From: Sipunculus nudus
Lineage: Eukaryota; Annelida; Sipuncula; Golfingiida; Sipunculidae
Length of the DNA: 64,000 bases
Direction: 5' to 3'
Assembly (NCBI GenBank): GCA_026874595.1
Contig: CM049314.1
Location: 50,389,812 to 50,453,811 of the forward strand
Part shown: piece by piece, positions 1-45,445 of the stretch
How positions within the stretch are numbered: position 1 is the stretch's first letter
Layout of the letters: each line of letters starts with the position of its first letter
Notes under the pieces: model-generated
The model's input: the letters and a program-made list of their open reading frames with translations, nothing else
Database searches by the model: none
What the model was told of the DNA's origin: nothing
Made by a program: the position numbers and the translations under genes

Positions 1-323
1 CTCAAATTCGCTTGCTTGCCGGTTCTTGCGTCTCACATATAGCATTCTACAGGCCACAGTTCTGAAAGAATCCTTTTAAAACTATTACATCTTATGTCTT
101 ACACATATATCTCGAAACCGATTTTTCATTTTCCAGAATTGGCCGCTAGGGGGCGGTGCACTCAAACTTGCACAACATATCATTTTTTGGCCATATCTCC
201 AAAACTATTAACCTCATTTACATAAATTATAGCTTATTATCTTCCTCTTAGGATTCTTCATAACATGATTAAGTCATCTGTTCTCAATCTTGGGTCAGTA
301 TGTTTGTCTGTTTGTCAGTTGTC
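1..323. repeat. Monomer A' (reference)
   Basis: Begins CTCAAATTCGCTTGC and ends GTTTGTCAGTTGTC; 323 bp. Carries a CTCF-like core. It differs from A and E mainly in its last 90 bp (CTTAGGATTCTTCATAAC in place of CTGGGTCTTTCC), where it matches neither, and it always precedes B. Confidence 0.92.
140..158 (+). promoter_or_regulatory. CTCF-core-like motif in A'
   Basis: TGGCCGCTAGGGGGCGGTG differs at one position from the vertebrate CTCF core (about CCASYAGRKGGCRS). The same motif recurs at the same offset in every A' monomer. Binding is inferred, not shown. Confidence 0.5.
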
Positions 324-471
324 CTCATTTTCGCCTGCTTCCTGGTTCTTGCGTCTCACATGTAGCATTCTACTGGCCACAGTTTTGAAGGAATCGTTTT
401 GTAAATTACACTTGTCATATATCGTGATGATATCTGGAAGTCCTATGTTTATTATTCAAATAAGTCAAAGA

Positions 472-480
472 TCAAGGTCA
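472..480 (+). promoter_or_regulatory. Nuclear-receptor extended half-site in B
   Basis: TCAAGGTCA, the consensus monomer element of ERR/NR5A-type receptors, followed directly by AGGTGATC. Found in the B monomers of the core units examined. Confidence 0.35.
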
Positions 481-622
481 AGGTGATCAAAATATATCAA
501 AATCTTATTTTCTTTAGAACTTTGTTAATATTGGTTCCTTCTTCACAAACTATGGATTATTTTCTTTCACTTTGACACTGCTGGTTCATCTGACTAACTT
601 TACATCATTTCCGGCAAGCGCG

Positions 623-640
623 TGACCTCAGGTCATCTAG
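623..640. other. Short hairpin followed by CTAG at end of B
   Basis: Stem TGACC/GGTCA with loop TCA (623-635), then T and CTAG (637-640), then a T-rich TGTC run. Hairpin plus CTRR is the 3'-end layout of Helitrons, and a GTCT-type run beside it is a habit of Helentron-derived small elements. Read the other way, the order is (GACA)n, AAACTAGA, hairpin. A distant copy at 44,971-44,983 keeps the stem with a compensated base pair. Confidence 0.45.
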
Positions 641-642
641 TT

Positions 643-646
<4 letters not shown>

Positions 647-670
<24 letters not shown>
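647..670 (+). repeat. (TGTC)6 microsatellite between B and C
   Basis: Six TGTC copies in the core units inspected; unit 12 has five, explaining its 2,059-bp length. Edge units have fewer or interrupted copies. Confidence 0.95.
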
Positions 671-673
<3 letters not shown>

Positions 674-782
674 GTACTCTCTACAGGCCACAATTTTCCA
701 GCAATTGCTTTCAAACTTATACAGCTGGTAGACAAGCAAAAGTCCTGGAGGCCTATTGTTTTTGGGCATTATAGGTCAAATG

Positions 783-797
783 TCAAGGTCAAGGTCA
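783..797 (+). promoter_or_regulatory. Overlapping nuclear-receptor half-sites in C
   Basis: TCAAGGTCAAGGTCA holds two overlapping TCAAGGTCA words. Recurs in every core C monomer. Binding is speculative. Confidence 0.35.
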
Positions 798-924
798 TCA
801 AAAGTATACAAAACGGTTTTTTGTTCATATCTGTGTTAATATTGGTCGTATCTACTTCAACAGTAGCTCATTTTAATCGTCATTCCAAGGCCTGTTTTCT
901 GGTGTGTAGCTGACTCAATTTGCG

Positions 925-938
925 GTAACCATGGTAAC
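925..938. promoter_or_regulatory. RFX X-box-like palindrome in C
   Basis: GTAACCATGGTAAC fits the relaxed X-box GTHNCCATRGNAAC. Present at this offset in the core C monomers; edge units have GTTACCATGGTAAC, GTAACAATGGTTAC and similar inverted forms, so the dyad has persisted. Confidence 0.4.
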
Positions 939-1071
939 ACATTTTTGGGGAAAAGTGCTGATATTTTTCTAAATTTGTCAGTTTTAAAGCTACAGAGGTC
1001 TAGTTTTTTGCTTCAGGTAGCATTCACCTAGTACTACAAGATTCTATTAAGAGTCTCGCAATATCTCGTAT

Positions 1072-1094
1072 AATATCTCGTCAAACGAGATATT
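1072..1094. other. AT-rich hairpin at C/D junction
   Basis: Perfect 10-bp arms AATATCTCGT / ACGAGATATT with loop CAA; outer CTCG/CGAG pairs extend it past a small internal loop. Unit 22 has the same arms with loop GA; unit 24 has a decayed version. Confidence 0.75.
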
Positions 1095-1113
1095 TCGAGA
1101 TTTCAGTAATCTT

Positions 1114-1401
1114 GCCCTGGAGGCCACAGTTTTGCAGGAATCTTTTTGAAACTGGCATATCTTAAGTCCTACACTATTATCTCGAAATCAATTTTTCATT
1201 TTTTTAATTCGGCCGCTAGGGGGCGCTGGGTGCAAACCTCTCCAACATATCATGTTTTGGCAATATCTCCAAAATTATAAGCCTCAATTACAAAAACTAT
1301 AGTGTATTTTTTTCCTCTAAGTCTTCTTCATGAACTCGTTTAGTCATCTGGTCTCAATCTTGTGTCACTTTGTCTGTGTGTCCGTCTGTTTCTCAGTTGT
1401 C
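1114..1401. repeat. Monomer D (reference)
   Basis: Begins near CCCTGGAGGCCACAG; about 288 bp. It lacks the first 45-50 bp of the usual monomer, whose place is taken by the end of C. Carries a CTCF-like core ending GCGCTG rather than GCGGTG. Confidence 0.85.
1210..1228 (+). promoter_or_regulatory. CTCF-core-like motif in D
   Basis: CGGCCGCTAGGGGGCGCTG; carries the GCGCTG ending typical of the longer CTCF motif. Same orientation as the sites in A', E and A. Confidence 0.5.
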
Positions 1402-1732
1402 CTCAAATCCGCTTGCTTGCCGGTTCTTGCGTCTCACATATAGCATTCTACAGGACACAGTTTTGAAAGAATCTTTTTAAAACTATTACATCTTATGTCT
1501 TACACTTATATCTCGAAACCGATTTTTTATTTTCCAGAATTGGCCGCTAGGGGGCGGTGCACTCAAACATGCACAACATATCATTTTTTGGCCATATCTC
1601 CAAAACTATAAACATCATTTACATAAACTATAGCTTATTTTCTTCCTCTGGGTCTTTCCAAAAACCTGGTGTATTCATTTGGTCTCAATCTTGAGTCACT
1701 TTGTCTGTGTGTCCGTCTGTTTCTCAGTTGTC
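1402..1732. repeat. Monomer E (reference)
   Basis: Exactly 331 bp, from CTCAAATCCGCTTGC to TTCTCAGTTGTC. Very close to A; diagnostic differences include AGGACACAG for AGGCCACAG and CAAACATGCAC for CAAACTTGCAC. Present in short and long units, absent from old unit 24. Confidence 0.93.
1541..1559 (+). promoter_or_regulatory. CTCF-core-like motif in E
   Basis: TGGCCGCTAGGGGGCGGTG, 331 bp before the equivalent site in A, giving two sites one monomer apart. Confidence 0.5.
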
Positions 1733-2063
1733 CTCAAATTCGCTTGCTTGCCGGTTCTTGCGTCTCACATATAGCATTCTACAGGCCACAGTTCTGAAAG
1801 AATCCTTTTAAAACTATTACATCTTATGTCTTACACATATATCTCGAAACCGATTTTTCATTTTCCAGAATTGGCCGCTAGGGGGCGGTGCACTCAAACT
1901 TGCACAACATATCATTTTTTGGCCATATCTCCAAAACTATTAACCTCATTTACATAAACTATAGCTTATTTTCTTCCTCTGGGTCTTTCCAAAAACCTGG
2001 TGTATTCATTTGGTCTCAATCTTGAGTCACTTTGTCTGTGTGTCCGTCTGTTTCTCAGTTGTC
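1733..2063. repeat. Monomer A (extra monomer of long units)
   Basis: Exactly 331 bp. Its left two-thirds matches A' and its right third matches E, as expected if made by unequal crossing-over between neighbouring E and A' monomers. Its presence is the only difference between long and short units. Confidence 0.93.
1872..1890 (+). promoter_or_regulatory. CTCF-core-like motif in A
   Basis: Identical to the site in E. Because A is present only in long units, long units have four sites and short units three. Confidence 0.5.
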
Positions 2064-2705
2064 CTCAAATTCGCTTGCTTGCCGGTTCTTGCGTCTCACA
2101 TATAGCATTCTACAGGCCACAGTTCTGAAAGAATCCTTTTAAAACTATTACATCTTATGTCTTACACATATATCTCGAAACCGATTTTTCATTTTCCAGA
2201 ATTGGCCGCTAGGGGGCGGTGCACTCAAACTTGCACAACATATCATTTTTTGGCCATATCTCCAAAACTATTAACCTCATTTACATAAATTATAGCTTAT
2301 TATCTTCCTCTTAGGATTCTTCATAACATGATTAAGTCATCTGTTCTCAATCTTGGGTCAGTATGTTTGTCTGTTTGTCAGTTGTCCTCATTTTCGCCTG
2401 CTTCCTGGTTCTTGCGTCTCACATGTAGCATTCTACTGGCCACAGTTTTGAAGGAATCGTTTTGTAAATTACACTTGTCATATATCGTGATGATATCTGG
2501 AAGTCCTATGTTTATTATTCAAATAAGTCAAAGATCAAGGTCAAGGTGATCAAAATATATCAAAATCTTATTTTCTTTAGAACTTTGTTAATATTGGTTC
2601 CTTCTTCACAAACTATGGATTATTTTCTTTCACTTTGACACTGCTGGTTCATCTGACTAACTTTACATCATTTCCGGCAAGCGCGTGACCTCAGGTCATC
2701 TAGTT

Positions 2706-2736
<31 letters not shown>

Positions 2737-3795
2737 GTACTCTCTACAGGCCACAATTTTCCAGCAATTGCTTTCAAACTTATACAGCTGGTAGACAAGC
2801 AAAAGTCCTGGAGGCCTATTGTTTTTGGGCATTATAGGTCAAATGTCAAGGTCAAGGTCATCAAAAGTATACAAAACGGTTTTTTGTTCATATCTGTGTT
2901 AATATTGGTCGTATCTACTTCAACAGTAGCTCATTTTAATCGTCATTCCAAGGCCTGTTTTCTGGTGTGTAGCTGACTCAATTTGCGGTAACCATGGTAA
3001 CACATTTTTGGGGAAAAGTGCTGATATTTTTCTAAATTTGTCAGTTTTAAAGCTACAGAGGTCTAGTTTTTTGCTTCAGGTAGCATTCACCTAGTACTAC
3101 AAGATTCTATTAAGAGTCTCGCAATATCTCGTATAATATCTCGTCAAACGAGATATTTCGAGATTTCAGTAATCTTGCCCTGGAGGCCACAGTTTTGCAG
3201 GAATCTTTTTGAAACTGGCATATCTTAAGTCCTACACTATTATCTCGAAATCAATTTTTCATTTTTTTAATTCGGCCGCTAGGGGGCGCTGGGTGCAAAC
3301 CTCTCCAACATATTATGTTTTGGCAATATCTCCAAAATTATAAGCCTCAATTACAAAAACTATAGTGTATTTTTTTCCTCTAAGTCTTCTTCATGAACTC
3401 GTTTAGTCATCTGGTCTCAATCTTGTGTCACTTTGTCTGTGTGTCCGTCTGTTTCTCAGTTGTCCTCAAATCCGCTTGCTTGCCGGTTCTTGCGTCTCAC
3501 ATATAGCATTCTACAGGACACAGTTTTGAAAGAATCTTTTTAAAACTATTACATCTTATGTCTTACACTTATATCTCGAAACCGATTTTTTATTTTCCAG
3601 AATTGGCCGCTAGGGGGCGGTGCACTCAAACATGCACAACATATCATTTTTTGGCCATATCTCCAAAACTATAAACATCATTTACATAAACTATAGCTTA
3701 TTTTCTTCCTCTGGGTCTTTCCAAAAACCTGGTGTATTCATTTGGTCTCAATCTTGAGTCACTTTGTCTGTGTGTCCGTCTGTTTCTCAGTTGTC
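2064..3795. repeat. Satellite unit 2, short
   Basis: 1,732 bp, A'-B-C-D-E. D has TATTATG for TATCATG (T at 3314), a variant shared only with unit 4 among the units compared. Confidence 0.95.
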
Positions 3796-4437
3796 CTCAA
3801 ATTCGCTTGCTTGCCGGTTCTTGCGTCTCACATATAGCATTCTACAGGCCACAGTTCTGAAAGAATCCTTTTAAAACTATTACATCTTATGTCTTACACA
3901 TATATCTCGAAACCGATTTTTCATTTTCCAGAATTGGCCGCTAGGGGGCGGTGCACTCAAACTTGCACAACATATCATTTTTTGGCCATATCTCCAAAAC
4001 TATTAACCTCATTTACATAAATTATAGCTTATTATCTTCCTCTTAGGATTCTTCATAACATGATTAAGTCATCTGTTCTCAATCTTGGGTCAGTATGTTT
4101 GTCTGTTTGTCAGTTGTCCTCATTTTCGCCTGCTTCCTGGTTCTTGCGTCTCACATGTAGCATTCTACTGGCCACAGTTTTGAAGGAATCGTTTTGTAAA
4201 TTACACTTGTCATATATCGTGATGATATCTGGAAGTCCTATGTTTATTATTCAAATAAGTCAAAGATCAAGGTCAAGGTGATCAAAATATATCAAAATCT
4301 TATTTTCTTTAGAACTTTGTTAATATTGGTTCCTTCTTCACAAACTATGGATTATTTTCTTTCACTTTGACACTGCTGGTTCATCTGACTAACTTTACAT
4401 CATTTCCGGCAAGCGCGTGACCTCAGGTCATCTAGTT

Positions 4438-4468
<31 letters not shown>

Positions 4469-5858
4469 GTACTCTCTACAGGCCACAATTTTCCAGCAAT
4501 TGCTTTCAAACTTATACAGCTGGTAGACAAGCAAAAGTCCTGGAGGCCTATTGTTTTTGGGCATTATAGGTCAAATGTCAAGGTCAAGGTCATCAAAAGT
4601 ATACAAAACGGTTTTTTGTTCATATCTGTGTTAATATTGGTCGTATCTACTTCAACAGTAGCTCATTTTAATCGTCATTCCAAGGCCTGTTTTCTGGTGT
4701 GTAGCTGACTCAATTTGCGGTAACCATGGTAACACATTTTTGGGGAAAAGTGCTGATATTTTTCTAAATTTGTCAGTTTTAAAGCTACAGAGGTCTAGTT
4801 TTTTGCTTCAGGTAGCATTCACCTAGTACTACAAGATTCTATTAAGAGTCTCGCAATATCTCGTATAATATCTCGTCAAACGAGATATTTCGAGATTTCA
4901 GTAATCTTGCCCTGGAGGCCACAGTTTTGCAGGAATCTTTTTGAAACTGGCATATCTTAAGTCCTACACTATTATCTCGAAATCAATTTTTCATTTTTTT
5001 AATTCGGCCGCTAGGGGGCGCTGGGTGCAAACCTCTCCAACATATCATGTTTTGGCAATATCTCCAAAATTATAAGCCTCAATTACAAAAACTATAGTGT
5101 ATTTTTTTCCTCTAAGTCTTCTTCATGAACTCGTTTAGTCATCTGGTCTCAATCTTGTGTCACTTTGTCTGTGTGTCCGTCTGTTTCTCAGTTGTCCTCA
5201 AATCCGCTTGCTTGCCGGTTCTTGCGTCTCACATATAGCATTCTACAGGACACAGTTTTGAAAGAATCTTTTTAAAACTATTACATCTTATGTCTTACAC
5301 TTATATCTCGAAACCGATTTTTTATTTTCCAGAATTGGCCGCTAGGGGGCGGTGCACTCAAACATGCACAACATATCATTTTTTGGCCATATCTCCAAAA
5401 CTATAAACATCATTTACATAAACTATAGCTTATTTTCTTCCTCTGGGTCTTTCCAAAAACCTGGTGTATTCATTTGGTCTCAATCTTGAGTCACTTTGTC
5501 TGTGTGTCCGTCTGTTTCTCAGTTGTCCTCAAATTCGCTTGCTTGCCGGTTCTTGCGTCTCACATATAGCATTCTACAGGCCACAGTTCTGAAAGAATCC
5601 TTTTAAAACTATTACATCTTATGTCTTACACATATATCTCGAAACCGATTTTTCATTTTCCAGAATTGGCCGCTAGGGGGCGGTGCACTCAAACTTGCAC
5701 AACATATCATTTTTTGGCCATATCTCCAAAACTATTAACCTCATTTACATAAACTATAGCTTATTTTCTTCCTCTGGGTCTTTCCAAAAACCTGGTGTAT
5801 TCATTTGGTCTCAATCTTGAGTCACTTTGTCTGTGTGTCCGTCTGTTTCTCAGTTGTC
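3796..5858. repeat. Satellite unit 3, long
   Basis: 2,063 bp. No differences from unit 1 were noticed on reading. Confidence 0.95.
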
Positions 5859-6500
5859 CTCAAATTCGCTTGCTTGCCGGTTCTTGCGTCTCACATATAG
5901 CATTCTACAGGCCACAGTTCTGAAAGAATCCTTTTAAAACTATTACATCTTATGTCTTACACATATATCTCGAAACCGATTTTTCATTTTCCAGAATTGG
6001 CCGCTAGGGGGCGGTGCACTCAAACTTGCACAACATATCATTTTTTGGCCATATCTCCAAAACTATTAACCTCATTTACATAAATTATAGCTTATTATCT
6101 TCCTCTTAGGATTCTTCATAACATGATTAAGTCATCTGTTCTCAATCTTGGGTCAGTATGTTTGTCTGTTTGTCAGTTGTCCTCATTTTCGCCTGCTTCC
6201 TGGTTCTTGCGTCTCACATGTAGCATTCTACTGGCCACAGTTTTGAAGGAATCGTTTTGTAAATTACACTTGTCATATATCGTGATGATATCTGGAAGTC
6301 CTATGTTTATTATTCAAATAAGTCAAAGATCAAGGTCAAGGTGATCAAAATATATCAAAATCTTATTTTCTTTAGAACTTTGTTAATATTGGTTCCTTCT
6401 TCACAAACTATGGATTATTTTCTTTCACTTTGACACTGCTGGTTCATCTGACTAACTTTACATCATTTCCGGCAAGCGCGTGACCTCAGGTCATCTAGTT

Positions 6501-6531
<31 letters not shown>

Positions 6532-7590
6532 GTACTCTCTACAGGCCACAATTTTCCAGCAATTGCTTTCAAACTTATACAGCTGGTAGACAAGCAAAAG
6601 TCCTGGAGGCCTATTGTTTTTGGGCATTATAGGTCAAATGTCAAGGTCAAGGTCATCAAAAGTATACAAAACGGTTTTTTGTTCATATCTGTGTTAATAT
6701 TGGTCGTATCTACTTCAACAGTAGCTCATTTTAATCGTCATTCCAAGGCCTGTTTTCTGGTGTGTAGCTGACTCAATTTGCGGTAACCATGGTAACACAT
6801 TTTTGGGGAAAAGTGCTGATATTTTTCTAAATTTGTCAGTTTTAAAGCTACAGAGGTCTAGTTTTTTGCTTCAGGTAGCATTCACCTAGTACTACAAGAT
6901 TCTATTAAGAGTCTCGCAATATCTCGTATAATATCTCGTCAAACGAGATATTTCGAGATTTCAGTAATCTTGCCCTGGAGGCCACAGTTTTGCAGGAATC
7001 TTTTTGAAACTGGCATATCTTAAGTCCTACACTATTATCTCGAAATCAATTTTTCATTTTTTTAATTCGGCCGCTAGGGGGCGCTGGGTGCAAACCTCTC
7101 CAACATATTATGTTTTGGCAATATCTCCAAAATTATAAGCCTCAATTACAAAAACTATAGTGTATTTTTTTCCTCTAAGTCTTCTTCATGAACTCGTTTA
7201 GTCATCTGGTCTCAATCTTGTGTCACTTTGTCTGTGTGTCCGTCTGTTTCTCAGTTGTCCTCAAATCCGCTTGCTTGCCGGTTCTTGCGTCTCACATATA
7301 GCATTCTACAGGACACAGTTTTGAAAGAATCTTTTTAAAACTATTACATCTTATGTCTTACACTTATATCTCGAAACCGATTTTTTATTTTCCAGAATTG
7401 GCCGCTAGGGGGCGGTGCACTCAAACATGCACAACATATCATTTTTTGGCCATATCTCCAAAACTATAAACATCATTTACATAAACTATAGCTTATTTTC
7501 TTCCTCTGGGTCTTTCCAAAAACCTGGTGTATTCATTTGGTCTCAATCTTGAGTCACTTTGTCTGTGTGTCCGTCTGTTTCTCAGTTGTC
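5859..7590. repeat. Satellite unit 4, short
   Basis: 1,732 bp. Shares TATTATG (T at 7109) with unit 2, so units 1+2 and 3+4 look like a duplicated 3,795-bp pair. Confidence 0.95.
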
Positions 7591-8232
7591 CTCAAATTCG
7601 CTTGCTTGCCGGTTCTTGCGTCTCACATATAGCATTCTACAGGCCACAGTTCTGAAAGAATCCTTTTAAAACTATTACATCTTATGTCTTACACATATAT
7701 CTCGAAACCGATTTTTCATTTTCCAGAATTGGCCGCTAGGGGGCGGTGCACTCAAACTTGCACAACATATCATTTTTTGGCCATATCTCCAAAACTATTA
7801 ACCTCATTTACATAAATTATAGCTTATTATCTTCCTCTTAGGATTCTTCATAACATGATTAAGTCATCTGTTCTCAATCTTGGGTCAGTATGTTTGTCTG
7901 TTTGTCAGTTGTCCTCATTTTCGCCTGCTTCCTGGTTCTTGCGTCTCACATGTAGCATTCTACTGGCCACAGTTTTGAAGGAATCGTTTTGTAAATTACA
8001 CTTGTCATATATCGTGATGATATCTGGAAGTCCTATGTTTATTATTCAAATAAGTCAAAGATCAAGGTCAAGGTGATCAAAATATATCAAAATCTTATTT
8101 TCTTTAGAACTTTGTTAATATTGGTTCCTTCTTCACAAACTATGGATTATTTTCTTTCACTTTGACACTGCTGGTTCATCTGACTAACTTTACATCATTT
8201 CCGGCAAGCGCGTGACCTCAGGTCATCTAGTT

Positions 8233-8263
<31 letters not shown>

Positions 8264-9653
8264 GTACTCTCTACAGGCCACAATTTTCCAGCAATTGCTT
8301 TCAAACTTATACAGCTGGTAGACAAGCAAAAGTCCTGGAGGCCTATTGTTTTTGGGCATTATAGGTCAAATGTCAAGGTCAAGGTCATCAAAAGTATACA
8401 AAACGGTTTTTTGTTCATATCTGTGTTAATATTGGTCGTATCTACTTCAACAGTAGCTCATTTTAATCGTCATTCCAAGGCCTGTTTTCTGGTGTGTAGC
8501 TGACTCAATTTGCGGTAACCATGGTAACACATTTTTGGGGAAAAGTGCTGATATTTTTCTAAATTTGTCAGTTTTAAAGCTACAGAGGTCTAGTTTTTTG
8601 CTTCAGGTAGCATTCACCTAGTACTACAAGATTCTATTAAGAGTCTCGCAATATCTCGTATAATATCTCGTCAAACGAGATATTTCGAGATTTCAGTAAT
8701 CTTGCCCTGGAGGCCACAGTTTTGCAGGAATCTTTTTGAAACTGGCATATCTTAAGTCCTACACTATTATCTCGAAATCAATTTTTCATTTTTTTAATTC
8801 GGCCGCTAGGGGGCGCTGGGTGCAAACCTCTCCAACATATCATGTTTTGGCAATATCTCCAAAATTATAAGCCTCAATTACAAAAACTATAGTGTATTTT
8901 TTTCCTCTAAGTCTTCTTCATGAACTCGTTTAGTCATCTGGTCTCAATCTTGTGTCACTTTGTCTGTGTGTCCGTCTGTTTCTCAGTTGTCCTCAAATCC
9001 GCTTGCTTGCCGGTTCTTGCGTCTCACATATAGCATTCTACAGGACACAGTTTTGAAAGAATCTTTTTAAAACTATTACATCTTATGTCTTACACTTATA
9101 TCTCGAAACCGATTTTTTATTTTCCAGAATTGGCCACTAGGGGGCGGTGCACTCAAACATGCACAACATATCATTTATTGGCCATATCTCCAAAACTATA
9201 AACATCATTTACATAAACTATAGCTTATTTTCTTCCTCTGGGTCTTTCCAAAAACCTGGTGTATTCATTTGGTTTCAATCTTGAGTCACTTTGTCTGTGT
9301 GTCCGTCTGTTTCTCAGTTGTCCTCAAATTCGCTTGCTTGCCGGTTCTTGCGTCTCACATATAGCATTCTACAGGCCACAGTTCTGAAAGAATCCTTTTA
9401 AAACTATTACATCTTATGTCTTACACATATATCTCGAAACCGATTTTTCATTTTCCAGAATTGGCCGCTAGGGGGCGGTGCACTCAAACTTGCACAACAT
9501 ATCATTTTTTGGCCATATCTCTAAAACTATTAACCTCATTTACATAAACTATAGCTTATTTTCTTCCTCTGGGTCTTTCCAAAAACCTGGTGTATTCATT
9601 TGGTCTCAATCTTGAGTCACGTTGTCTGTGTGTCCGTCTGTTTCTCAGTTGTC
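7591..9653. repeat. Satellite unit 5, long
   Basis: 2,063 bp. E has TCATTTATTGG and a G-to-A change at 9136 that completes the CTCF consensus; A has CTCTAAAAC for CTCCAAAAC. The E and A variants recur together in units 12 and 15. Confidence 0.95.
9131..9149 (+). promoter_or_regulatory. Full-consensus CTCF-core match in unit 5
   Basis: TGGCCACTAGGGGGCGGTG: the A at position 6 removes the only mismatch to CCASYAGRKGGCRS. A single-copy variant within the core array. Confidence 0.55.
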
Positions 9654-10295
9654 CTCAAATTCGCTTGCTTGCCGGTTCTTGCGTCTCACATATAGCATTC
9701 TACAGGCCACAGTTCTGAAAGAATCCTTTTAAAACTATTACATCTTATGTCTTACACATATATCTCGAAACCGATTTTTCATTTTCCAGAATTGGCCGCT
9801 AGGGGGCGGTGCACTCAAACTTGCACAACATATCATTTTTTGGCCATATCTCCAAAACTATTAACCTCATTTACATAAATTATAGCTTATTATCTTCCTC
9901 TTAGGATTCTTCATAACATGATTAAGTCATCTGTTCTCAATCTTGGGTCAGTATGTTTGTCTGTTTGTCAGTTGTCCTCATTTTCGCCTGCTTCCTGGTT
10001 CTTGCGTCTCACATGTAGCATTCTACTGGCCACAGTTTTGAAGGAATCGTTTTGTAAATTACACTTGTCATATATCGTGATGATATCTGGAAGTCCTATG
10101 TTTATTATTCAAATAAGTCAAAGATCAAGGTCAAGGTGATCAAAATATATCAAAATCTTATTTTCTTTAGAACTTTGTTAATATTGGTTCCTTCTTCACA
10201 AACTATGGATTATTTTCTTTCACTTTGACACTGCTGGTTCATCTGACTAACTTTACATCATTTCCGGCAAGCGCGTGACCTCAGGTCATCTAGTT

Positions 10296-10326
<31 letters not shown>

Positions 10327-12358: not shown

Positions 12359-12389
<31 letters not shown>

Positions 12390-14090: not shown

Positions 14091-14121
<31 letters not shown>

Positions 14122-15822: not shown

Positions 15823-15853
<31 letters not shown>

Positions 15854-17554: not shown

Positions 17555-17585
<31 letters not shown>

Positions 17586-19617: not shown

Positions 19618-19648
<31 letters not shown>

Positions 19649-26872: not shown

Positions 26873-26903
<31 letters not shown>

Positions 26904-28935: not shown

Positions 28936-28966
<31 letters not shown>

Positions 28967-30667: not shown

Positions 30668-30698
<31 letters not shown>

Positions 30699-32730: not shown

Positions 32731-32761
<31 letters not shown>

Positions 32762-34462: not shown

Positions 34463-34493
<31 letters not shown>

Positions 34494-35883: not shown

Positions 35884-36525
35884 CTCAAATTCGCTTGCTT
35901 GCCGGTTCTTGCGTCTCACATATAGCATTCTACAGGCCACAGTTCTGAAAGAATCCTTTTAAAACTATTACATCTTATGTCTTACACATATATCTCGAAA
36001 CCGATTTTTCATTTTCCAGAATTGGCCGCTAGGGGGCGGTGCACTCAAACTTGCACAACATATCATTTTTTGGCCATATCTCCAAAACTATTAACCTCAT
36101 TTACATAAATTATAGCTTATTATCTTCCTCTTAGGATTCTTCATAACATGATTAAGTCATCTGTTCTCAATCTTGGGTCAGTATGTTTGTCTGTTTGTCA
36201 GTTGTCCTCATTTTCGCCTGCTTCCTGGTTCTTGCGTCTCACATGTAGCATTCTACTGGCCACAGTTTTGAAGGAATCGTTTTGTAAATTACACTTGTCA
36301 TATATCGTGATGATATCTGGAAGTCCTATGTTTATTATTCAAATAAGTCAAAGATCAAGGTCGAGGTGATCAAAATATATCAAAATCTTATTTTCTTTAG
36401 AACTTTGTTAATATTGGTTCCTTCTTCACAAACTATGGATTATTTTCTTTCACTTTGACACTGCTGGTTCATCTGACTAACTTTACATCATTTCCGGCAA
36501 GCGCGTGACCTCAGGTCATCTAGTT

Positions 36526-36556
<31 letters not shown>

Positions 36557-37946
36557 GTACTCTCTACAGGCCACAATTTTCCAGCAATTGCTTTCAAACT
36601 TATACAGCTGGTAGACAAGCAAAAGTCCTGGAGGCCTATTGTTTTTGGGCATTATAGGTCAAATGTCAAGGTCAAGGTCATCAAAAGTATACAAAACGGT
36701 TTTTTGTTCATATCTGTGTTAATATTGGTCGTATCTACTTCAACAGTAGCTCATTTTAATCGTCATTCCAAGGCCTGTTTTCTGGTGTGTAGCTGACTCA
36801 ATTTGCGGTAACCATGGTAACACATTTTTGGGGAAAAGTGCTGATATTTTTCTAAATTTGTCAGTTTTAAAGCTACAGAGGTCTAGTTTTTTGCTTCAGG
36901 TAGCATTCACCTAGTACTACAAGATTCTATTAAGAGTCTCGCAATATCTCGTATAATATCTCGTCAAACGAGATATTTCGAGATTTCAGTAATCTTGCCC
37001 TGGAGGCCACAGTTTTGCAGGAATCTTTTTGAAACTGGCATATCTTAAGTCCTACACTATTATCTCGAAATCAATTTTTCATTTTTTTAATTCGGCCGCT
37101 AGGGGGCGCTGGGTGCAAACCTCTCCAACATATCATGTTTTGGCAATATCTCCAAAATTATAAGCCTCAATTTCAAAAACTATAGTGTATTTTTTTCCTC
37201 TAAGTCTTCTTCATGAACTCGTTTAGTCATCTGGTCTCAATCTTGTGTCACTTTGTCTGTGTGTCCGTCTGTTTCTCAGTTGTCCTCAAATCCGCTTGCT
37301 TGCCGGTTCTTGCGTCTCACATATAGCATTCTACAGGACACAGTTTTGAAAGAATCTTTTTAAAACTATTACATCTTATGTCTTACACTTATATCTCGAA
37401 AACGATTTTTTATTTTCCAGAATTGGCCGCTAGGGGGCGGTGCACTCAAACATGCACAACATATCATTTTTTGGCCATATCTCCAAAACTATAAACATCA
37501 TTTACATAAACTATAGCTTATTTTCTTCCTCTGGGTCTTTCCAAAAACCTGGTGTATTCATTTGGTCTCAATCTTGAGTCACTTTGTCTGTGTGTCCGTC
37601 TGTTTGTCAGTTGTCCTCAAATTCGCTTGCTTGCCGGTTCTTGCGTCTCACATATAGCATTCTACAGGCCACAGTTCTGAAAGAATCCTTTTAAAACTAT
37701 TACATCTTATGTCTTACACATATATCTCGAAACCGATTTTTCATTTTCCAGAATTGGCCGCTAGGGGGCGGTGCACTCAAACTTGCACAACATATCATTT
37801 TTTGGCCATATCTCCAAAACTATTAACCTCATTTACATAAACTATAGCTTATTTTCTTCCTCTGGGTCTTTCCAAAAACCTGGTGTATTCATTTGGTCTC
37901 AATCTTGAGTCACTTTGTCTGTGTGTCCGTCTGTTTCTCAGTTGTC
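35884..37946. repeat. Satellite unit 20, long; last core unit
   Basis: 2,063 bp. More private changes than other core units (AGGTCGAGGTG in B, CAATTTCAAAAAC in D, CGAAAACGATT in E, TGTTTGTCAG at the end of E), the first sign of the ageing edge. Confidence 0.95.
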
Positions 37947-38588
37947 CTCAAATTCGCTTGCTTGCCGGTTCTTGCGTCTCACATATAGCATTCTACAGGC
38001 CACAGTTCTGAAAGAATCCTTTTAAAACTATTACATCTTATGTCTTACACATATATCTCGAAACCGATTTTTCATTTTCCAGAATTGGCCGCTAGGGGGC
38101 GGTGCACTCAAACTTGCACAACATATCATTTTTTGGCCATATCTCCAAAACTATTAGCCTCATTTACATAAATTATAGCTTATTATCTTCCTCTTAGGAT
38201 TCTTCATAACATGATTAAGTCATCTGTTCTCAATCTTGGGTCAGTATGTTTGTCTGTTTGTCAGTTGTCCTCATTTTCGCCTGCTTCCTGGTTCTTGCGT
38301 CTCACATGTAGCATTCTACTGGCCACAGTTTTGAAGGAATCGTTTTGTAAATTACACTTGTCATATATCGTGATGATATCTGGAAGTCCTATGTTTATTA
38401 TTCAAATAAGTCAAAGATCAAGGTCAAGGTGATCAAAATATATCAAAATCTTATTTTCTTTAGAACTTTGTTAATATTGGTTCCTTCTTCACAAACTATG
38501 GATTATTTTCTTTCACTTTGACACTGCTGGTTCATCTGACTAACTTTACATCATTTCCGGCAAGCGCGTGACCTCAGGTCATCTAGTT

Positions 38589-38619
<31 letters not shown>

Positions 38620-39677
38620 GTACTCTCTACAGGCCACAATTTTCCAGCAATTGCTTTCAAACTTATACAGCTGGTAGACAAGCAAAAGTCCTGGAGGCCT
38701 ATTGTTTTTGGGCATTATAGGTCAAATGTCAAGGTCAAGGTCATCAAAAGTATACAAAACGGTTTTTTGTTCATATCTGTGTTAATATTAGTCGTATCTA
38801 CTTCAACAGTAGCTCATTTTAATCGTCATTCCAAGGCCTGTCTTCTGGTGTGTAGCTGACTCAATTTGCGGTTACCATGGTAACGCATTTTTGGGGAAAA
38901 GTGCTGATATTTTTCTAAATTTGTCAGTTTTAAAGCTACAGAGGTCTAGTTTTTTTGCTTCAGGTAGCATTCACCTAGTACTACAAGATTCTATTAAGAG
39001 TCTCGCAATATCTCGTATAATATCTCGTCAAACGAGATATTTCGAGATTTCAGTAATCTTGCCCTGGAGGCCACAGTTTTGCAGGAATCTTTTTGAAACT
39101 GGCATATCTTAAGTCCTACACTATTATCTCGAAATCAATTTTTCATTTTTTAATTCGGCCGCTAGGGGGCGCTGGGTGCAAACCTCTCCAACATATCATG
39201 TTTTGGCAATATCTCCAAACTTATAAGCCTCAATTACAAAAACTATAGTTTATTTTTTTCCTCTAAGTCTTCTTCATGAACTCGGTTAGTCATCTGGTCT
39301 CAATCTTGTGTCACTTTGTCTGTGTGTCCGTCTGTTTCTCAGTTGTCCTCAAATCCGCTAGCTTGCCGGTTCGTTCGTCTCACATATAGCATTCTACAGG
39401 ACACAGTTTTGAAAGAATCTTTTTAAAACTATTACATCTTATGTCTCACACTAATATCTCGAAACCGATTTTTCATTTTCCAGAATTGGCCGCTAGGGGG
39501 CGGTGCACTCAAACTTGCACAACATATCATTTTTTGGCCATATCTCCAAAACTATAAACATCATTTACATAAACTATAGCTTATTTTCTTCCTCTGGGTC
39601 TTTCAAAAAACTGGTGTATTCATTTGGTCTCAATCTTGAGTCACTTTGTCTGTGTGTCCGTCTGTTTCTCAGTTGTC
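37947..39677. repeat. Satellite unit 21, short, mildly diverged
   Basis: A'-B-C-D-E, about 1,731 bp. Near-identical to the core to about 38,790, then scattered substitutions and small indels in C, D and E. It already lacks the AAAATAAGG/CCTTATTTT hairpin that older units have. Confidence 0.93.
38871..38884. promoter_or_regulatory. Perfect 14-bp X-box palindrome in unit 21
   Basis: GTTACCATGGTAAC, an exact dyad fitting the strict RFX consensus GTTRCCATGGYAAC. Core units differ at the third base. Confidence 0.45.
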
Positions 39678-41412
39678 CTCAAATCGCTTGCTTCCCGGTT
39701 CTTGCGTCTCACATATAGCATTCTACAGGCCACAGTTTTGAAAGAATCCTTTTAAAACTGTTACATCTTATGTCTTACACTAATATCTCGAAACCGATTT
39801 TTCATTTTCCAGAATTGGCCGCCAGGGGGCGGTGCACTCAGACTTGCACAACATATCATTTTTTGGCCATATCTCCAAAATTATTAACCTCATTTACATA
39901 AATTATAGCTTATTATCTTCCTCTTAGGTTTCTTCATAACATGATTAAGTCATCTGATCTCAATCTTGGGTCAGTTTGTCAGTATTTTGGTCTGTTTGTC
40001 AGTTGTCCTCAATTTCGCCTGCTTCCTGGTTCTTGCGTCTCACATGTAGCATTCTACTGGCCACAGTTTTGCAGGAATCGTTTTGTAAATTACACTTGTC
40101 ATATATCGTGATGATATCTGGAAGCCCTATGTTTATTATTCAAATAAGTTAAAGATCAAGGTCAAGGTGATCAAAATATATCAAAATCTTATTTTCTTTA
40201 GAACTTTGTTAATATTGCTTCTTTCTTCACAAACTATGGATTATTTTCTTTCACTTTGATACTGCTCGTTCATCTGACTAACTTTACATCATTTCCGGCA
40301 AGCGCGTGACCTCAGGTCATCTAGTTTGTCTGTGTACTCTCTACAGGCCACAATTTTGCAGCAATTGTCTTTAAACTTATAAAGCTGGTAGACAAGCAAA
40401 AGTCCTCGAGGCCTATTGTTTTTGGGCAATACAGGTCAAAGGTCAAGGTTAAGGTCATCAAAACTTCTGAAAACGGTTTTTTCTTTATATCTTTGTCACT
40501 ATTAGTCGTATCTTCTTCAAACACAGCTCATTTTAAACGTCATTCCAAGACCAGTCATCTGATTTGTAGCTGACTCAAATTTGCCGTAACAATGGTTACG
40601 AATTTATGGGAAAAAGTCATGATATTCGAAAATAAGGGGCCTTATTTTTCTAATTTGGCAGTTTTACAGCTAGAGAGGTCTAGTTTTTTGCATCAGGTAG
40701 CATTCAACAAGAACTGCAAGATTGTTTTATAAGTCTCGCGATATCTCGTATAATATCTCGTGAACGAGATATTTCGAGATTTCAGACGTCTTGCCCTGGA
40801 GGCCACAGTTTGGCTGGAATCTTTTTGAAACTAACACATAATAAGTCCTACACTATTGTCTCGAAATTGTTTTTCCATTTTCTGAATGCGGCGGCTAGGG
40901 GGCGCTGTATGCAAACCTCCCCAACATACCATGTTTTGGCCATATCTCCAAAACTGTAAGCCTCAATTACAAAAAACTATAGCTTATTTTCTTCCTCTGG
41001 GTCTTTAAAAAAATCTGGTGTATTCATTTGGTCTCAATCTTAAGTCACTTTGTCTGTGTGTCCGTCTGTTTCTCAGTTGTCTTCAAATCCGCTTGCTTGC
41101 CGATTCTTGCGTCTCCCATATAGAATTCTACAGGCCACAGTTTTGAAAGAATCCTTTTAAAACTATTACATCTTACGTCTTACACTAATATCTCGAAACC
41201 GATTTTTCATTTTCCAGAATTGGCCGCTAGGGGGCGGTGCACTCAAACTTGCACAGCATATCATTTTTTGGCCATCTCTCCAAAACTATAACCCTCATTT
41301 ACATAAACTATAGCTTATTTTCTTCCTCTGGGTCTTTCCAAAAACCTGGTGTATTCATTTGGTCTCAATCTTGAGTCACTTTGTCTGTGTGTTCGTCTGT
41401 TTCTCAGTTGTC
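39678..41412. repeat. Satellite unit 22, short, older
   Basis: About 1,735 bp: A' 39,678-40,007, B from 40,008, C and D, then E 41,082-41,412. Many substitutions relative to the core. It has almost no TGTC run, and C retains a 20-bp near-palindrome that the core lost. Confidence 0.92.
40629..40648. other. Ancestral hairpin in C, lost from the core array
   Basis: Arms AAAATAAGG / CCTTATTTT with spacer GG. Also present at 42,377-42,396 and decayed near 44,055. All core units and unit 21 read GATATTTTTCTAA here, a deletion of about 20 bp removing the dyad. Confidence 0.85.
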
Positions 41413-43162
41413 CTCATATTCGCTTGCTTCCCGGTTCTTGCGTCTCACATATAGCATTCTACAGGCCACAGTTTTGAAAGAATCCTTTTCAAACTATTAC
41501 ATCTTATGTCTTACACTAATATCTCGAAACTGATTTTTCATTTTCCAGAATTGGCCGCTAGGGGGCGGTGCACTCAAACTTGCACAACATTTCATTTTTT
41601 GGCCATATCTGCAAAACTATAAACCTCATTTACATAAACTATAGCTTATTATCTTCCTCTGAGGTTTCTTCATAACATGATTAAGTCATCTGTTCTCAAT
41701 CTTGGGTCAGTTTGTCAGTATGTTTGTCTGTTTTTCAGTTGTCCTCAATTTCGCCTGCTTCCTGGTTCTTGCATCTCATATATAGCATTCTACAGGCCAC
41801 AATTTGGCAGGAATCGTTTTGTAAATTACACTTGTCATATATCGTGATGATATCTGGAAGTCCTATATTTATTATTCAAATAAGTCAAAGGGCAAGGTCA
41901 AGGTAATCAAAATATATCAAAATCTTATTTTCTTTAGAACTTTTATTAATATTGGTTCGTTCTTTACAAACTATGGATTATTTTCTTTCACTTTGACACT
42001 GCTCGTTGATCTGACTAACTTTACATCATTTCTGGCAAGCGCGTGACCTCAGGTCATCTAGTTTGTCTGTTTGTTTGTCTGTCTGTGAACTCTCTACAGG
42101 CCACAATTTTTCAGCAATTGCTTTCAAACTTACACAGCTGGTACATAAGCAAAAGTCCTCGAGGCCTATTGCTTTTGGGCATTATAGGTCAACGGTCAAG
42201 GTCATCAAAACTTCTGAAAACGGTTTTTTCCTTCATATCTTTGTCACTATAAGTCGTATCTTCTTCAAACATAGCTCATTTTAAACGTCATTCCAAGGCC
42301 AGTCATCTGGTGTGTAGCTGACTCAAATTTGCCGTAACCATGGTAACGAATTTTTGGGAAAAAGTCATGATATTCGAAAATAAGGGGCCTTATTTTTCTA
42401 ACTTTGGCAGTTTTACAGCTAGAGAGGTCTAGTTTTTTGCATCAGGTAGCATTCAACTAGTATTGCAAGGTTGTTTTATAAGTCTCACGATATCTCGTAT
42501 AATATCTCGTCAAACGAGATATTTCGAGATTTCAGTAGTCTTGCCCTGGAGGCCACAGTTTTGCTGGAATCTTTTTGAAACTGACATGTCGTAAGTCCTA
42601 CACTATTATCTCGAAATTGCTTTTTCCATTTTCTGAATGCGGCCGCTAGGGGGCGCTGGATGCAAACCTCCCTAACATTCCATGTTTTGGACATATCTCC
42701 AAAACTGTAAGCCTCAATTACATAAACTATAGCTTATTTTCTTCCTCTGGGTCTTTCAAAAAAACTGGTGTATTCATTTGGTCTCAATCTTGAGTCACCT
42801 TGTCTGTGTGTCCGTCTGTTTCTCAGTTGTCCTCAAATCCGCTTGCTTCCCGGTTCTTGCGTCTCACATATAGCATTCTACAGGCCACAGTTTTGAAAGA
42901 ATCCTTTTCAAACTATTACATCTTATGTCTTACACTAATATCTCGAAACCGATTTTTCATTTTCCAGAATTGGCCGCTAGGGGGCGGTGCACTCAAACTT
43001 GCACAACATATAATTTTTTGGCCATATCTGCAAAACTATAAACCTCATTTACATAAACTATAGCTTATTTTCTTCCTCTGGGTCTTTCCAAAAACCTGGT
43101 GTATTCATTTGGTCTCAATCTTGAGTCACTTTGTCTGTGTGTCCGTCTGTTTCTCAGTTGTC
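41413..43162. repeat. Satellite unit 23, short, older
   Basis: About 1,750 bp: A' 41,413-41,743, B from 41,744, C with the ancestral hairpin, D, and E 42,832-43,162. Divergence is similar to unit 22. Confidence 0.92.
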
Positions 43163-44518
43163 CTCAAATTCGCTTGCTGACCGGTTCTTGCATCTCATAT
43201 ATAGCATTCTACAGGCCACAATTTTGAAAGAATCCTTTTAAAACTATTACATCTTATGTCTTACACTGATATCTCGAAACCGATTTTTCATTTTATCAGA
43301 ATTGGCCGCTAGGGGGCGGTGCACTCAAACTTGTACAACATTTCATTTTTTGGCCATATCTCCAAAACTATACACCTCATTTACATAAACTATAGCTTAT
43401 TATCTTCCTCTGAGGTTTCTTCATAACATGATTAAGTCATCTGATCTCAATCTTGGGTCAGTTTGTCAGTATTTTGGTCTGTTTGTCAGTTGTCCTCAAT
43501 TTCGCCTGCTTCCTGGTTCTTGCGTCTCACATGTAGCATTCTACTGGCCACAATTTGGCAGGAATCGTTTTGTAAATAACACTTGTCATATATCGTGATG
43601 ATATCTGGAAGTCCTATTTTTATTATTCAATAAGTCAAAGGTCAAGGTCAAGGTGATCAAAATATATCAAAATCTTATTTTCTTTAGAACTTTGTTAATT
43701 TTGGTTCTTTCTTCACAAACTATGGATTATTTTCTTTCAATTTGATACTGCTCGTTCATCTGATTAACTTTACATCATTTCCGGCAAGCGCGTGACCTCA
43801 GGTCATCTAGTTTGTCTGTCTGTCCTAGTACTCTCTACAGGCCACAATTTTGAAGCAATTGCTTTTAAACTAACACCACTGTTAGACAAGCAAAAGTCGG
43901 TTTTTTCTTCATATCTTTGTTACTTTGTTACTATCAGTCGTTTCTACTTCAACAATAGCTCATTTTAATTGTCATTCCAAGGCTTGTCATCTGGTGTGAA
44001 GCTGACTCAAATTTGCCGTAACTATGGTTACAAATTTTGGGGGAAAAGTCATGATGTTTGAAAAGTAAGGGGTCTTATTTTTCTAACTTTGTCAGTTTTA
44101 AAGCTAGAGAGGTCTAGTTTTTTTGCATCAGGTAGCATTTAACTAGTACTACAAGGTTTTATTAAAAGTCTTGCACTATCTCGTAAAATATCTCGTGAAT
44201 AGAGATATTTCGAGATTTCATTTATCTTGCGCTAAAGGCCACATTATTGCAGGAATCTTTTTGAAACTGACATATCATAGATCCTACACTAGTATCTCAA
44301 AATTGTTTTTTCATTTTTTTAATATGGCTGCTAGGGGGCGCTGCACTCGACCCTCACACACATATCATTACATTGGCCATATCTCTAAAACCCTAAGCCT
44401 CAATTACATAAACTATAGCTTATTTTCTTCCTCTTGAGTCTTCTCCATAAACTGATAATGTCATCTGGTCTCAATCTTGTGTCACTTTGTCAGTGTGTCC
44501 GTCTGTTTGTCAGTTGTC
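43163..44518. repeat. Satellite unit 24, four-module, oldest recognisable
   Basis: About 1,356 bp: A' 43,163-43,494, B from 43,495, C with an internal deletion near 43,898, D ending 44,518. There is no E before the next monomer, so this unit appears to predate gain of E or lost it. Confidence 0.88.
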
Positions 44519-44970
44519 CTCAAATTCGCCTGCTTGCTGGTTCTTGTGTCTCACATATAGCATTCTACAGGCCACAGTTTTTAAAGAAGCATTTGAAAAC
44601 TGATGCATATTATGTTTTACAGAAATATCTCGAAACGTATTTTTCATTTTCCGGATATGGCCCCTAGGTGGCGCTGCACATGACCCTTACACACATATCA
44701 TGATATTTGTCATATCTTTAAAACCCAAAGCCTCAATTACAGTAACTATGGCTTATTTTCTTTCCCTGAGTCTTCTCCATGACCTGGTTAAGTATGTCTG
44801 TCTGTTCGTCTTTTGTGGTCAGCTTTGTCTGCTTCCTCGTTGTTTTGTCTGATATGTCATTCTACAGGCCCAAACTTCTCAGCAAACGCTGAGGGTCATT
44901 CAAATGAAAGAAAACCCACAATATGTTCTGTCTGTCCGTCTGTCTGTCATTTCAACTTCCGGCAAGCGCT

Positions 44971-44983
44971 CGACCTCTGGTCG
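44971..44983. other. Compensated copy of the B-end hairpin
   Basis: CGACC/GGTCG with loop TCT, followed by TCTAGTTTG. Core copies have TGACC/GGTCA: the outer T-A pair has become C-G on both sides. Confidence 0.6.
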
Positions 44984-45426
44984 TCTAGTTTGTTTGTCTG
45001 TCTGTCTCCGCCCACAAATGCACAGTTTTGCAGGGATCTCTTTCAAACTTACACAGCTGATAGAAAACCAAAAATCCTCGAAGCCTATTGATTTTTTTTA
45101 ATATCGGTCAAAGGTAAAGGTCATCGAAAAACGTTGAAAGTTTATTTTTGCCATAACTTCCTCAATATCAGTCCTATCTTTACAAACTTTAGCTTAACTT
45201 CTTCCTCTGGGTCTTCTCCAGATCTAATTTTTCCGTCTTGTCTCAAACTTGTATCACTTTGTCAGTTTGTCTATCTGTTTGACAGTTGTCCTCAATTTCG
45301 CATGCTTGCCGTTTCTTGCATCTTACTATAGCATTCTACAGGCCACGGTTTTGCAGGAATCCTTTTGAAACTGGTGCAACATATGTCTTACAGTAATATC
45401 TCGAGACAATTTTCATTCTCATGATA

Positions 45427-45445
45427 TGGCCACTAGGGGGCGCTG
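45427..45445 (+). promoter_or_regulatory. Best CTCF-consensus match in the window
   Basis: TGGCCACTAGGGGGCGCTG matches the extended vertebrate CTCF motif without a mismatch. It lies in an old edge monomer, suggesting that the full match is close to the ancestral state. Confidence 0.55.

What the first reader, a model, noticed from the sequence alone, without database searches (positions are those of the whole stretch)
140..45445. About 80 co-oriented CTCF-core-like sites in one array
Each A', A, D and E monomer carries GGCCRCTAGGGGGCGSTG at a fixed place: four per long unit, three per short unit, all on the plus strand. The oldest edge monomer (45,427) and one core copy (9,131) match the consensus fully. 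CTCF is conserved across bilaterians and site orientation matters for loop formation in vertebrates, so an array like this could act as a strong boundary or a CTCF sink. The GC-rich core stands out from AT-rich surroundings and has stayed intact in nearly all copies, including diverged ones.
Basis: partly seen in the sequence, partly recalled or inferred. Interest (0 to 1): 0.75.

Follow-up and report, generated by a model that had tools for sequence, protein, structure and literature searches.

The report
Satellite array packed with CTCF-like sites
A long tandem-repeat array in an unidentified genome carries, in most of its repeat units, a nearly perfect copy of the DNA word that the genome-folding protein CTCF recognises, all facing one way, so it may act as a one-way chromatin barrier, but no binding has been shown.

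Summary
The window holds 83 copies of GGCCRCTAGGGGGCGSTG (78 exact, all on +) in a higher-order satellite array that runs off the left edge and ends at 45,768. Each full class-1 monomer (331 bp) has one copy. The match to CTCF is exceptional: the edge box scores 29.3 of 30.9 bits on a recalled JASPAR matrix, and 0 of 2000 column-permuted matrices reach that.

Co-orientation follows from head-to-tail repetition. "Intact in nearly all copies" reflects 99.9% homogenisation. Across diverged lineages the box changes half as fast as the average 18-bp block (10.6% against 23.8%), but a 3' block is slower still and a free block scan does not single out the box.

New here: both CpGs of the box fall on CTCF's methylation-sensitive C2 and C12; two monomer classes carry different boxes at the same place; and an inverted relic of the satellite about 13 kb away holds a 22-bit CTCF-like site convergent with the array.

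Best reading: a CTCF-binding, possibly methylation-gated satellite that works like mammalian DXZ4, unproven. No eukaryote sequence could be searched; the species is unknown.

The parts
1..45768 (+). Satellite array, head to tail, open at the left window edge; ends inside a box at 45,768
1120..3182 (+). Representative long higher-order unit (2063 bp): E, A, A', D (class 1, with box), B, C (class 2, without box)
3183..4914 (+). Representative short higher-order unit (1732 bp), one A-type monomer fewer; 3 boxes
141..158 (+). First of 83 CTCF-like boxes (GGCCGCTAGGGGGCGGTG)
1211..1228 (+). Box in an E monomer (GGCCGCTAGGGGGCGCTG; 26.6 bits as 19-mer)
1542..1559 (+). Box in an A monomer (GGCCGCTAGGGGGCGGTG; 25.8 bits)
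1873..1890 (+). Box in an A' monomer
2204..2221 (+). Box in a D monomer
9132..9149 (+). Young copy with A at the R position (28.6 bits)
40890..40907 (+). Edge-unit box with a C-to-G change (GGCGGCTAGGGGGCGCTG; 14.0 bits)
44326..44343 (+). Edge box GGCTGCTAGGGGGCGCTG (17.1 bits)
44659..44676 (+). Edge box GGCCCCTAGGTGGCGCTG (22.9 bits)
45428..45445 (+). Edge box GGCCACTAGGGGGCGCTG, best CTCF match in the window (29.3 of 30.9 bits)
2436..2754 (+). Class-2 monomer B: same frame as class 1 (60% identity over 201 bp) but with AAGGTCAAGGTGATC in place of the box
2754..3182 (+). Class-2 monomer C (related to B, 66% over 186 bp): AAGGTCAAGGTCATC-like element, then a tail with a hairpin
3117..3163 (.). 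Inverted repeat (16-nt arms, 94% complementary) in the tail of C; its inner 10-nt arms recur exactly at 23 places in the array
45016..45338 (+). Edge class-2 monomer: 69.5% identical to class-1 monomer A over 328 bp but without the box
45668..45768 (+). Truncated last monomer; array breaks inside the box (GGCCACT then TGGCCAC...)
57594..58232 (-). Inverted, strongly diverged relic of the same satellite (C tail, E-type start, weaker pieces)
58111..58129 (-). CTCF-like site AGACCAACAGGGGGCGCTG (22.2 bits) inside the relic, convergent with the array

Best explanation
This is a satellite array with higher-order repeats whose class-1 monomer carries a high-scoring CTCF core site, amplified to at least 83 sites in 45 kb, about one per 0.55 kb. 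Shown: the sites, their CTCF-type sequence, their single orientation, and a rate of change in diverged copies about half the monomer average. Inferred: the animal's CTCF binds the boxes where the DNA is unmethylated. Both CpGs of the box sit on the cytosines (C2, C12) whose methylation weakens CTCF binding, so methylation could switch the whole array at once, as at mammalian DXZ4. When bound, such a bank would stop cohesin arriving from one side (a directional barrier and CTCF sink), and the inverted site at 58.1 kb would be a possible convergent partner. The single orientation itself is a by-product of head-to-tail repetition. The barrier step is the least certain, because orientation dependence was not seen in the non-vertebrates covered by the paper I consulted.
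For: Matrix score 25.8-29.3 of 30.9 bits in 79 of the 83 boxes (per-position p 7.8e-12 to 9.2e-10; matrix recalled). 0 of 3000 random monomers of the same dinucleotide make-up reach the A-type or edge score; 0 of 2000 column-permuted matrices reach the true score in five of six class-1 monomers, 2 of 2000 in the sixth. Across five diverged monomers the box differs at 10.6% of pairwise comparisons against a block mean of 23.8%, first of the 290 blocks with enough data; on a tree of all 16 full-length class-1 monomers aligned, 7 steps against a window mean of 17.4 (binomial p 0.005). The CpG at C12 is CG in 83 of 83 boxes; of the seven CpG positions seen in at least two of five lineages it alone is kept in all five, the other six (one of them the box's own C2) being kept in 17 of 30 cases. 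Full methylation of C2 and C12 weakened CTCF binding 7-fold on one oligo with CpGs at both (PMC10325916, passages). A 22.2-bit site lies in a relic of which only pieces still align. CTCF orthologues are reported in molluscs, annelids and rotifers (PMC10658182, passages). A one-way bank of CTCF motifs (14 copies in mouse) directs contacts at Dxz4 (PMC5899087, passages).
Against: No binding, methylation or Hi-C data; species unknown. The conservation test was made after the box had been picked out. When blocks with gaps are not filtered out, eight overlapping blocks in the 3' part (monomer positions 224-248), where one monomer has a gap, are slower than the box, and in the 16-monomer tree one window is slower and one equal. 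A free scan for slow blocks is matched by 102 of 200 column shuffles in 12 monomers, where it picks the right part of the box (CTAGGGGGCGGTG); in 7 and 5 monomers it picks the 3' block. Change within the box does not follow CTCF information content (rho 0.01): two of seven steps hit matrix column 5, an almost fixed CTCF base, and two hit column 6. The homogenised types carry G at column 6, a weaker CTCF base than the edge box has. Young copies show no CpG excess (1 of 25 deviations), which does not support heavy germline methylation of the array. Echinoderm TAD boundaries show no CTCF orientation pattern (PMC13317027, passages).
Confidence: 0.47

Rival explanations
1. Passive passenger: the ancestral monomer happened to contain a CTCF-type word (or took one up once), and unequal crossing-over amplified it. 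The boxes may be bound or silent but have no function and are not kept by selection.
For: 70 young class-1 monomers are 99.85-99.95% identical throughout, so 83 boxes amount to perhaps five to seven independent lineages (my judgement from the trees). The box does not stand out in a free block scan and a 3' block is slower. Three edge boxes have changed key CTCF bases. In the relic, the place that corresponds to the E box scores only -1.4 bits.
Against: The box changes at about half the monomer average, and its C12 CpG is the only one of seven CpG positions kept in all five lineages. 0 of 3000 random monomers contained such a match.
Confidence: 0.33
2. The box is a satellite-specific protein box like the CENP-B box of alpha satellite, or a site for another zinc-finger protein (Sp/KLF/EGR type), serving array or centromere packaging rather than looping. 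The two monomer classes with different boxes at one place recall the two monomer types of alpha satellite (recalled, not tested).
For: Higher-order organisation; class 1 and class 2 (B and the 45,016 monomer) share a frame but carry different boxes at the same place. GGGGGCGG in A, A' and D boxes is a GC-box word (recalled).
Against: No CENP-B box: one 1-mismatch match in the window, outside the array, against 3.3 expected. A GC box alone would not explain why GGC and CTAGG to its left show no step in the 12 monomers, whereas the CTCF motif spans the whole box; CTAGG does change once, at 39,817, in the 16.
Confidence: 0.15
3. The array arose by tandem amplification of a Helentron-type (HINE) element like the satellite-like repeats of the Pacific oyster, and the box is a leftover of that element's internal repeat.
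For: The array holds 20 short (TGTC)n runs, about one per young unit, and a hairpin in the C tail; GTCY-type microsatellites and a 3' palindrome are parts of Cg_HINE elements (PMC7492417, passages).
Against: Cg_HINE repeats are 140-180 bp, in arrays of mostly up to 5 and at most 29 monomers; here 331 bp and about 130 monomers by my count. Subterminal inverted repeats were not tested. This is about origin and does not exclude CTCF binding.
Confidence: 0.05

Closest known systems
DXZ4/Dxz4 macrosatellite (mammalian X)
   Same: Tandem array with CTCF motifs in its units, in tandem orientation; estimated 10-100 copies in human and 14 in mouse (PMC5899087, passages); hypomethylated and CTCF-bound on the inactive X (PMC3218863, passages).
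   Different: DXZ4 units are about 3 kb and 61-65% GC in primates, and human DXZ4 holds two sets of motifs in opposite orientation. Here 331-bp monomers in 1.7-2.1-kb units, 37-38% GC, with 3 or 4 sites per unit; no shown binding.
D4Z4, ICCE, FIRRE and tRNA-VNTR CTCF repeats (human)
   Same: Tandem repeats with CTCF sites; insulator or loop-anchor roles are named in the titles, abstract starts and passages seen.
   Different: Mammalian; units of 3.3 kb (D4Z4) and 7.3 kb (tRNA repeat) in the abstracts seen; not short-monomer satellites.
Alpha satellite with CENP-B box
   Same: Higher-order repeats, AT-rich monomers, a box in a subset of monomers (recalled).
   Different: Box sequence unrelated; CENP-B box absent from the array at up to 1 mismatch.
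SSUsat of Spisula subtruncata (bivalve satellite)
   Same: 315-bp monomer of similar size with conserved segments (PMC5537241, passages).
   Different: No higher-order repeats found there; I did not look for CTCF in that paper, and sequence relation is untested.

Membership tests
CTCF binding site (vertebrate-type core) | 19-bp core matching the CTCF matrix | tested here: met
   25.8-29.3 of 30.9 bits in 79 of 83 boxes, 14.0-22.9 in the other four; matrix recalled from memory
CTCF binding site (vertebrate-type core) | Occupied by CTCF in vivo | not testable with these tools
   No chromatin data; species unknown
CTCF binding site (vertebrate-type core) | Kept by selection at motif positions | tested here: inconclusive
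   About half the average rate, but a 3' block is slower, no distinction in a free scan, no correlation with motif information
DXZ4-type CTCF macrosatellite | CTCF motif in each repeat unit, in tandem orientation | tested here: met
   3 or 4 per unit in the first 20 units, 83 of 83 on +
DXZ4-type CTCF macrosatellite | Large GC-rich unit (about 3 kb, 61-65% GC) | tested here: not met
   1.7-2.1-kb units of 331-bp monomers, 37-38% GC
DXZ4-type CTCF macrosatellite | Methylation-dependent CTCF binding and long-range contacts | not testable with these tools
   CpGs at C2 in 78 of 83 boxes and at C12 in 83 of 83 make it possible only
Alpha-satellite-like centromeric satellite | CENP-B box | tested here: not met
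   TTCGNNNNANNCGGG: 0 matches in the array at up to 1 mismatch
HINE/Helentron-borne satellite repeats | Subterminal inverted repeats flanking the repeats | not tested
   Only microsatellite and hairpin seen

The most novel reading that the evidence does not exclude
A non-vertebrate animal has independently evolved a DXZ4-like device: a short-monomer satellite turned into a dense, one-way, methylation-switchable bank of CTCF sites that anchors a large domain boundary. That would mean orientation-dependent CTCF barriers are not a vertebrate invention.
Probability: 0.14. Interest if true: 0.88.

Novelty: new variant of a known kind. Interest (0 to 1): 0.54.

Why it matters
Whether CTCF orientation matters outside vertebrates is an open question: a 2026 echinoderm study says more bilaterian lineages are needed to settle it (PMC13317027, passages), and a review says that lack of motif directionality kept the mechanism of squid TADs open (PMC10658182, passages). 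An array of 83 co-oriented, mostly near-consensus sites with an inverted site about 13 kb away is a natural test object: one Hi-C map would show a one-sided stripe or nothing. It would also show that satellites can soak up or place an architectural protein.

Tried and rejected
Relatives: the monomer word GGCCATATCTYYAAAACYATAA gave 0 matches in viral contigs; AACTATAGCTTATTTTCTTCCTCTG and GGCCRCTAGGGGGCGSTGCAC gave 0 in the prokaryote genomes. The 18-mer gave 4 viral contigs, about what a rough estimate of mine (collection size assumed) gives for chance; they were not read. No eukaryote collection is on hand and no whole genome is held for the window.

Species and neighbours: no Rfam match at the gathering score and no tRNA in the window. 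20 of the 50 stop-to-stop ORFs of 62 aa or more in the flank were given to Pfam and none had a match above its curated cut-off; one of them had no PDB match at E 0.1. Bivalve origin is a recalled impression from AGGTCA-rich repeats; searches for literal words in papers found nothing, so I claim no taxon.

Print: searches for CTCF together with satellite, bivalve, mollusc, invertebrate or higher-order-repeat terms and for the word CTAGGGGGCG listed no paper whose title or abstract start describes a satellite of this kind; most subscription papers are not held.

Rejected: 'intact in nearly all copies' as evidence of selection. That the relic's site is the same box kept by descent: its flanks do not align to class-1 flanks better than shuffles (51, 58 and 99 of 500 as good), so it may be independent. 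Heavy germline methylation of the array: 11 of 13 non-CG states at CpG positions of diverged lineages are TG or CA and flank CpG o/e is 0.36, but only 1 of 25 young deviations is at a CpG.

Rows dropped and mended: the trees used 12, 7 or 5 of the 17 class-1 monomers aligned; one search repeats the count with 16 (the truncated 45,668 left out). Searches left out windows with many gaps (272-273 and 290 of 314 kept); searches give the unfiltered result, which is less favourable. The mutation spectrum (119 deviations) dropped one class-2 stretch of odd length and was swamped by another, at unit 37,003, with 94 deviations, which looks like an offset from a length change; one search drops both and replaces it.
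Full report
What is there. The window begins inside a tandem array and leaves it at 45,768. The box GGCCRCTAGGGGGCGSTG is found 78 times exactly and 83 times with at most two mismatches, always on the plus strand; shuffled windows give a mean of 0.01 matches even at three mismatches. Boxes are mostly 331 bp apart within a group and about 1070 bp apart between groups. Of the first 20 complete units ten are 2063 bp with four boxes and ten are 1728-1732 bp with three; then come three edge units of 1685-1751 bp with three, one of 1102 bp with two, and a lone box at 45,428. The long unit is E-A-A'-D-B-C; E, A, A' and D carry the box after 91 bp, B and C do not.

Is it a CTCF site? I scored the window with the JASPAR MA0139.1 counts as I remember them. 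The edge box at 45,428 scores 29.3 of a possible 30.9 bits (p 7.8e-12 per position), the E type 26.6 and the A/D type 25.8; three diverged edge boxes score 22.9, 17.1 and 14.0. Among 3000 random monomers of the same dinucleotide make-up none reached the A-type or edge score. Among 2000 matrices with the CTCF columns permuted none reached the true score in five of the six class-1 monomers tested; in the sixth (44,235) 2 of 2000 did. So the resemblance is to CTCF itself and not to any G-rich word. The class-2 monomers B, C and the edge copy at 45,016 score at best 9.5, -0.4 and -2.2.

Why 83 copies prove little. Seventy young class-1 monomers are 99.85-99.95% identical to the consensus of their type, and the box holds 2 of their 22 deviations where 1.2 are expected. 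The preservation there, and the single orientation, follow from homogenisation of a head-to-tail array. Only the differences between monomer types and the edge monomers carry information.

Conservation in diverged lineages. Among A, E and the monomers at 44,235, 44,568 and 45,339 the box differs at 10.6% of pairwise comparisons against a mean of 23.8%, the lowest of the 290 18-bp blocks with enough data. G and C columns in the box differ at 12.7%, outside at 29.0% (nominal p 0.014). On a tree of 12 monomers the box needs 6 steps against a mean of 17, the lowest of 272 low-gap windows and at exactly the motif's offset; on 7 monomers it ties with three windows outside the box. With all 16 full-length class-1 monomers it needs 7 of 312 steps (binomial p 0.005), the lowest of 272 low-gap windows. 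Against this: the box had been picked by eye; without the gap filter eight blocks in the 3' part, where the 44,568 monomer has a gap, are slower than the box in the pairwise test, and one window is slower and one equal on the 16-monomer tree. A free scan for slow blocks is matched by 102 of 200 column shuffles in the 12-monomer set; its best block there is CTAGGGGGCGGTG, the right part of the box, but in the sets of 7 and 5 it is the 3' block, matched by 13 and 15 of 200 shuffles. Two old E monomers look A-like in the 3' part by eye, which may lower its count by exchange. Change inside the box is unrelated to CTCF column information (rho 0.01); four of seven steps hit columns 5 and 6. I conclude that constraint is plausible but not shown.

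Methylation. In one study methylation at C2 dominates the block of CTCF binding and full methylation of C2 and C12 weakened binding 7-fold on an oligo with both CpGs, while methylation of the opposite strand alone strengthened it (PMC10325916, passages). Counting along CCGCTAGGGGGCG, both CpGs of the box fall on these two cytosines (my alignment). The first is CG in 78 of 83 boxes, the second in 83 of 83. Of seven CpG positions present in at least two of five lineages, only the second box CpG is kept in all; the other six, the first box CpG among them, are kept in 17 of 30 cases, and 11 of the 13 non-CG states are TG or CA, as deamination gives. Flank CpG o/e is 0.36 with TG and CA in excess, array 0.62. 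Young copies, however, show 1 CpG change among 25 deviations, the one in the box at 9,132. So exposure to methylation in the past is likely, and methylation could switch the boxes; whether it does is unknown.

Two classes, one frame. B aligns to class-1 monomer A at 60% over 201 bp, and the edge class-2 monomer at 45,016 at 69.5% over 328 bp; C aligns to B (66% over 186 bp) and to the 45,016 monomer (68% over 192 bp) but hardly to class 1 directly. At the place of the box they carry AGGTCA-type elements; AAGGTCAAGGTSATC has 43 copies in the array, all on +, and none in the flank. They look like nuclear-receptor half-sites (recalled). Different boxes at one place in a shared frame recall the two monomer types of alpha satellite (recalled), but the array has no CENP-B box at up to one mismatch.

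A second, inverted site. Outside the array one strong CTCF-like site exists, AGACCAACAGGGGGCGCTG at 58,111-58,129 on the minus strand (22.2 bits, p 2.4e-8; about 0.001 expected in the 18-kb flank by my arithmetic; the next best in the flank is 12.3 bits). It lies in an inverted, diverged relic of the same satellite: a C tail at 58,232-58,135 (E 4e-10), then the site, then an E-type start at 58,071-57,996 (E 6e-12) and weaker pieces to 57,594. At the place corresponding to the E box nothing is left (-1.4 bits). Whether the relic's site descends from the box is undecided. Its orientation is convergent with the array, the arrangement that anchors loops in vertebrates (PMC13317027, passages).

Mechanism. 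The most likely reading is a CTCF-binding satellite, possibly switched by methylation and acting, if bound, as a directional cohesin stop. Dxz4 is the precedent: a bank of motifs in one direction whose inversion redirects contacts (PMC5899087, abstract start and passages; PMC6985041, passages). It works like DXZ4 by anatomy, but it is not filed as a member: unit size and GC differ and binding is unknown. Orientation effects were not found in two echinoderms (PMC13317027, passages), so the barrier step is the weakest. CTCF orthologues are reported in molluscs, annelids and rotifers, while flatworms appear to lack CTCF and some nematodes lost it (PMC10658182, passages), so the taxon matters and is unknown here.

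Verdict. Observation confirmed; interpretation partly supported; a new variant of a known kind, CTCF-bearing tandem arrays, with a short monomer, a high site density and a two-box monomer system.

Noticed in passing
2436-3182 and other units: Class-2 monomers B and C carry AGGTCA-type elements (AAGGTCAAGGTSATC: 43 exact copies in the array, all +), nuclear-receptor-like half-sites, at the place where class 1 has the CTCF-like box.
   Followed up: partly
3117-3163 and other units: A strong inverted repeat with ATCTCG arms lies in the C tail; its inner arms recur exactly at 23 places.
   Followed up: partly
45740-45800: The array ends inside a box: GGCCACT is followed by TGGCCAC and AT-rich sequence.
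   Followed up: no
57594-58232 (-): Inverted relic of the satellite with a convergent CTCF-like site.
   Followed up: yes
1675-1708 (monomer positions 225-258 of an A monomer): A 3' block of the class-1 monomer (TCATTTGGTCTCAATCTTGAGTCACTTTGTCTGT) changes as slowly as or more slowly than the box; unexplained.
   Followed up: partly
37003-39065: The class-2 part of this unit departs from the other young units at 94 places in an ungapped comparison, probably because of a length change.
   Followed up: partly
58655-60356: A different, diverged tandem array with a period of about 180 bp.
   Followed up: no
60788-61277: Another tandem array with a 146-bp period containing AGGTCA words.
   Followed up: no
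62290-62370: Three copies of a 27-bp repeat inside a 132-aa open frame on the minus strand without a Pfam match above its cut-off.
   Followed up: partly
40799-42880: Edge E monomers with an A-like 3' half by eye, a sign of older exchange between monomer types.
   Followed up: no
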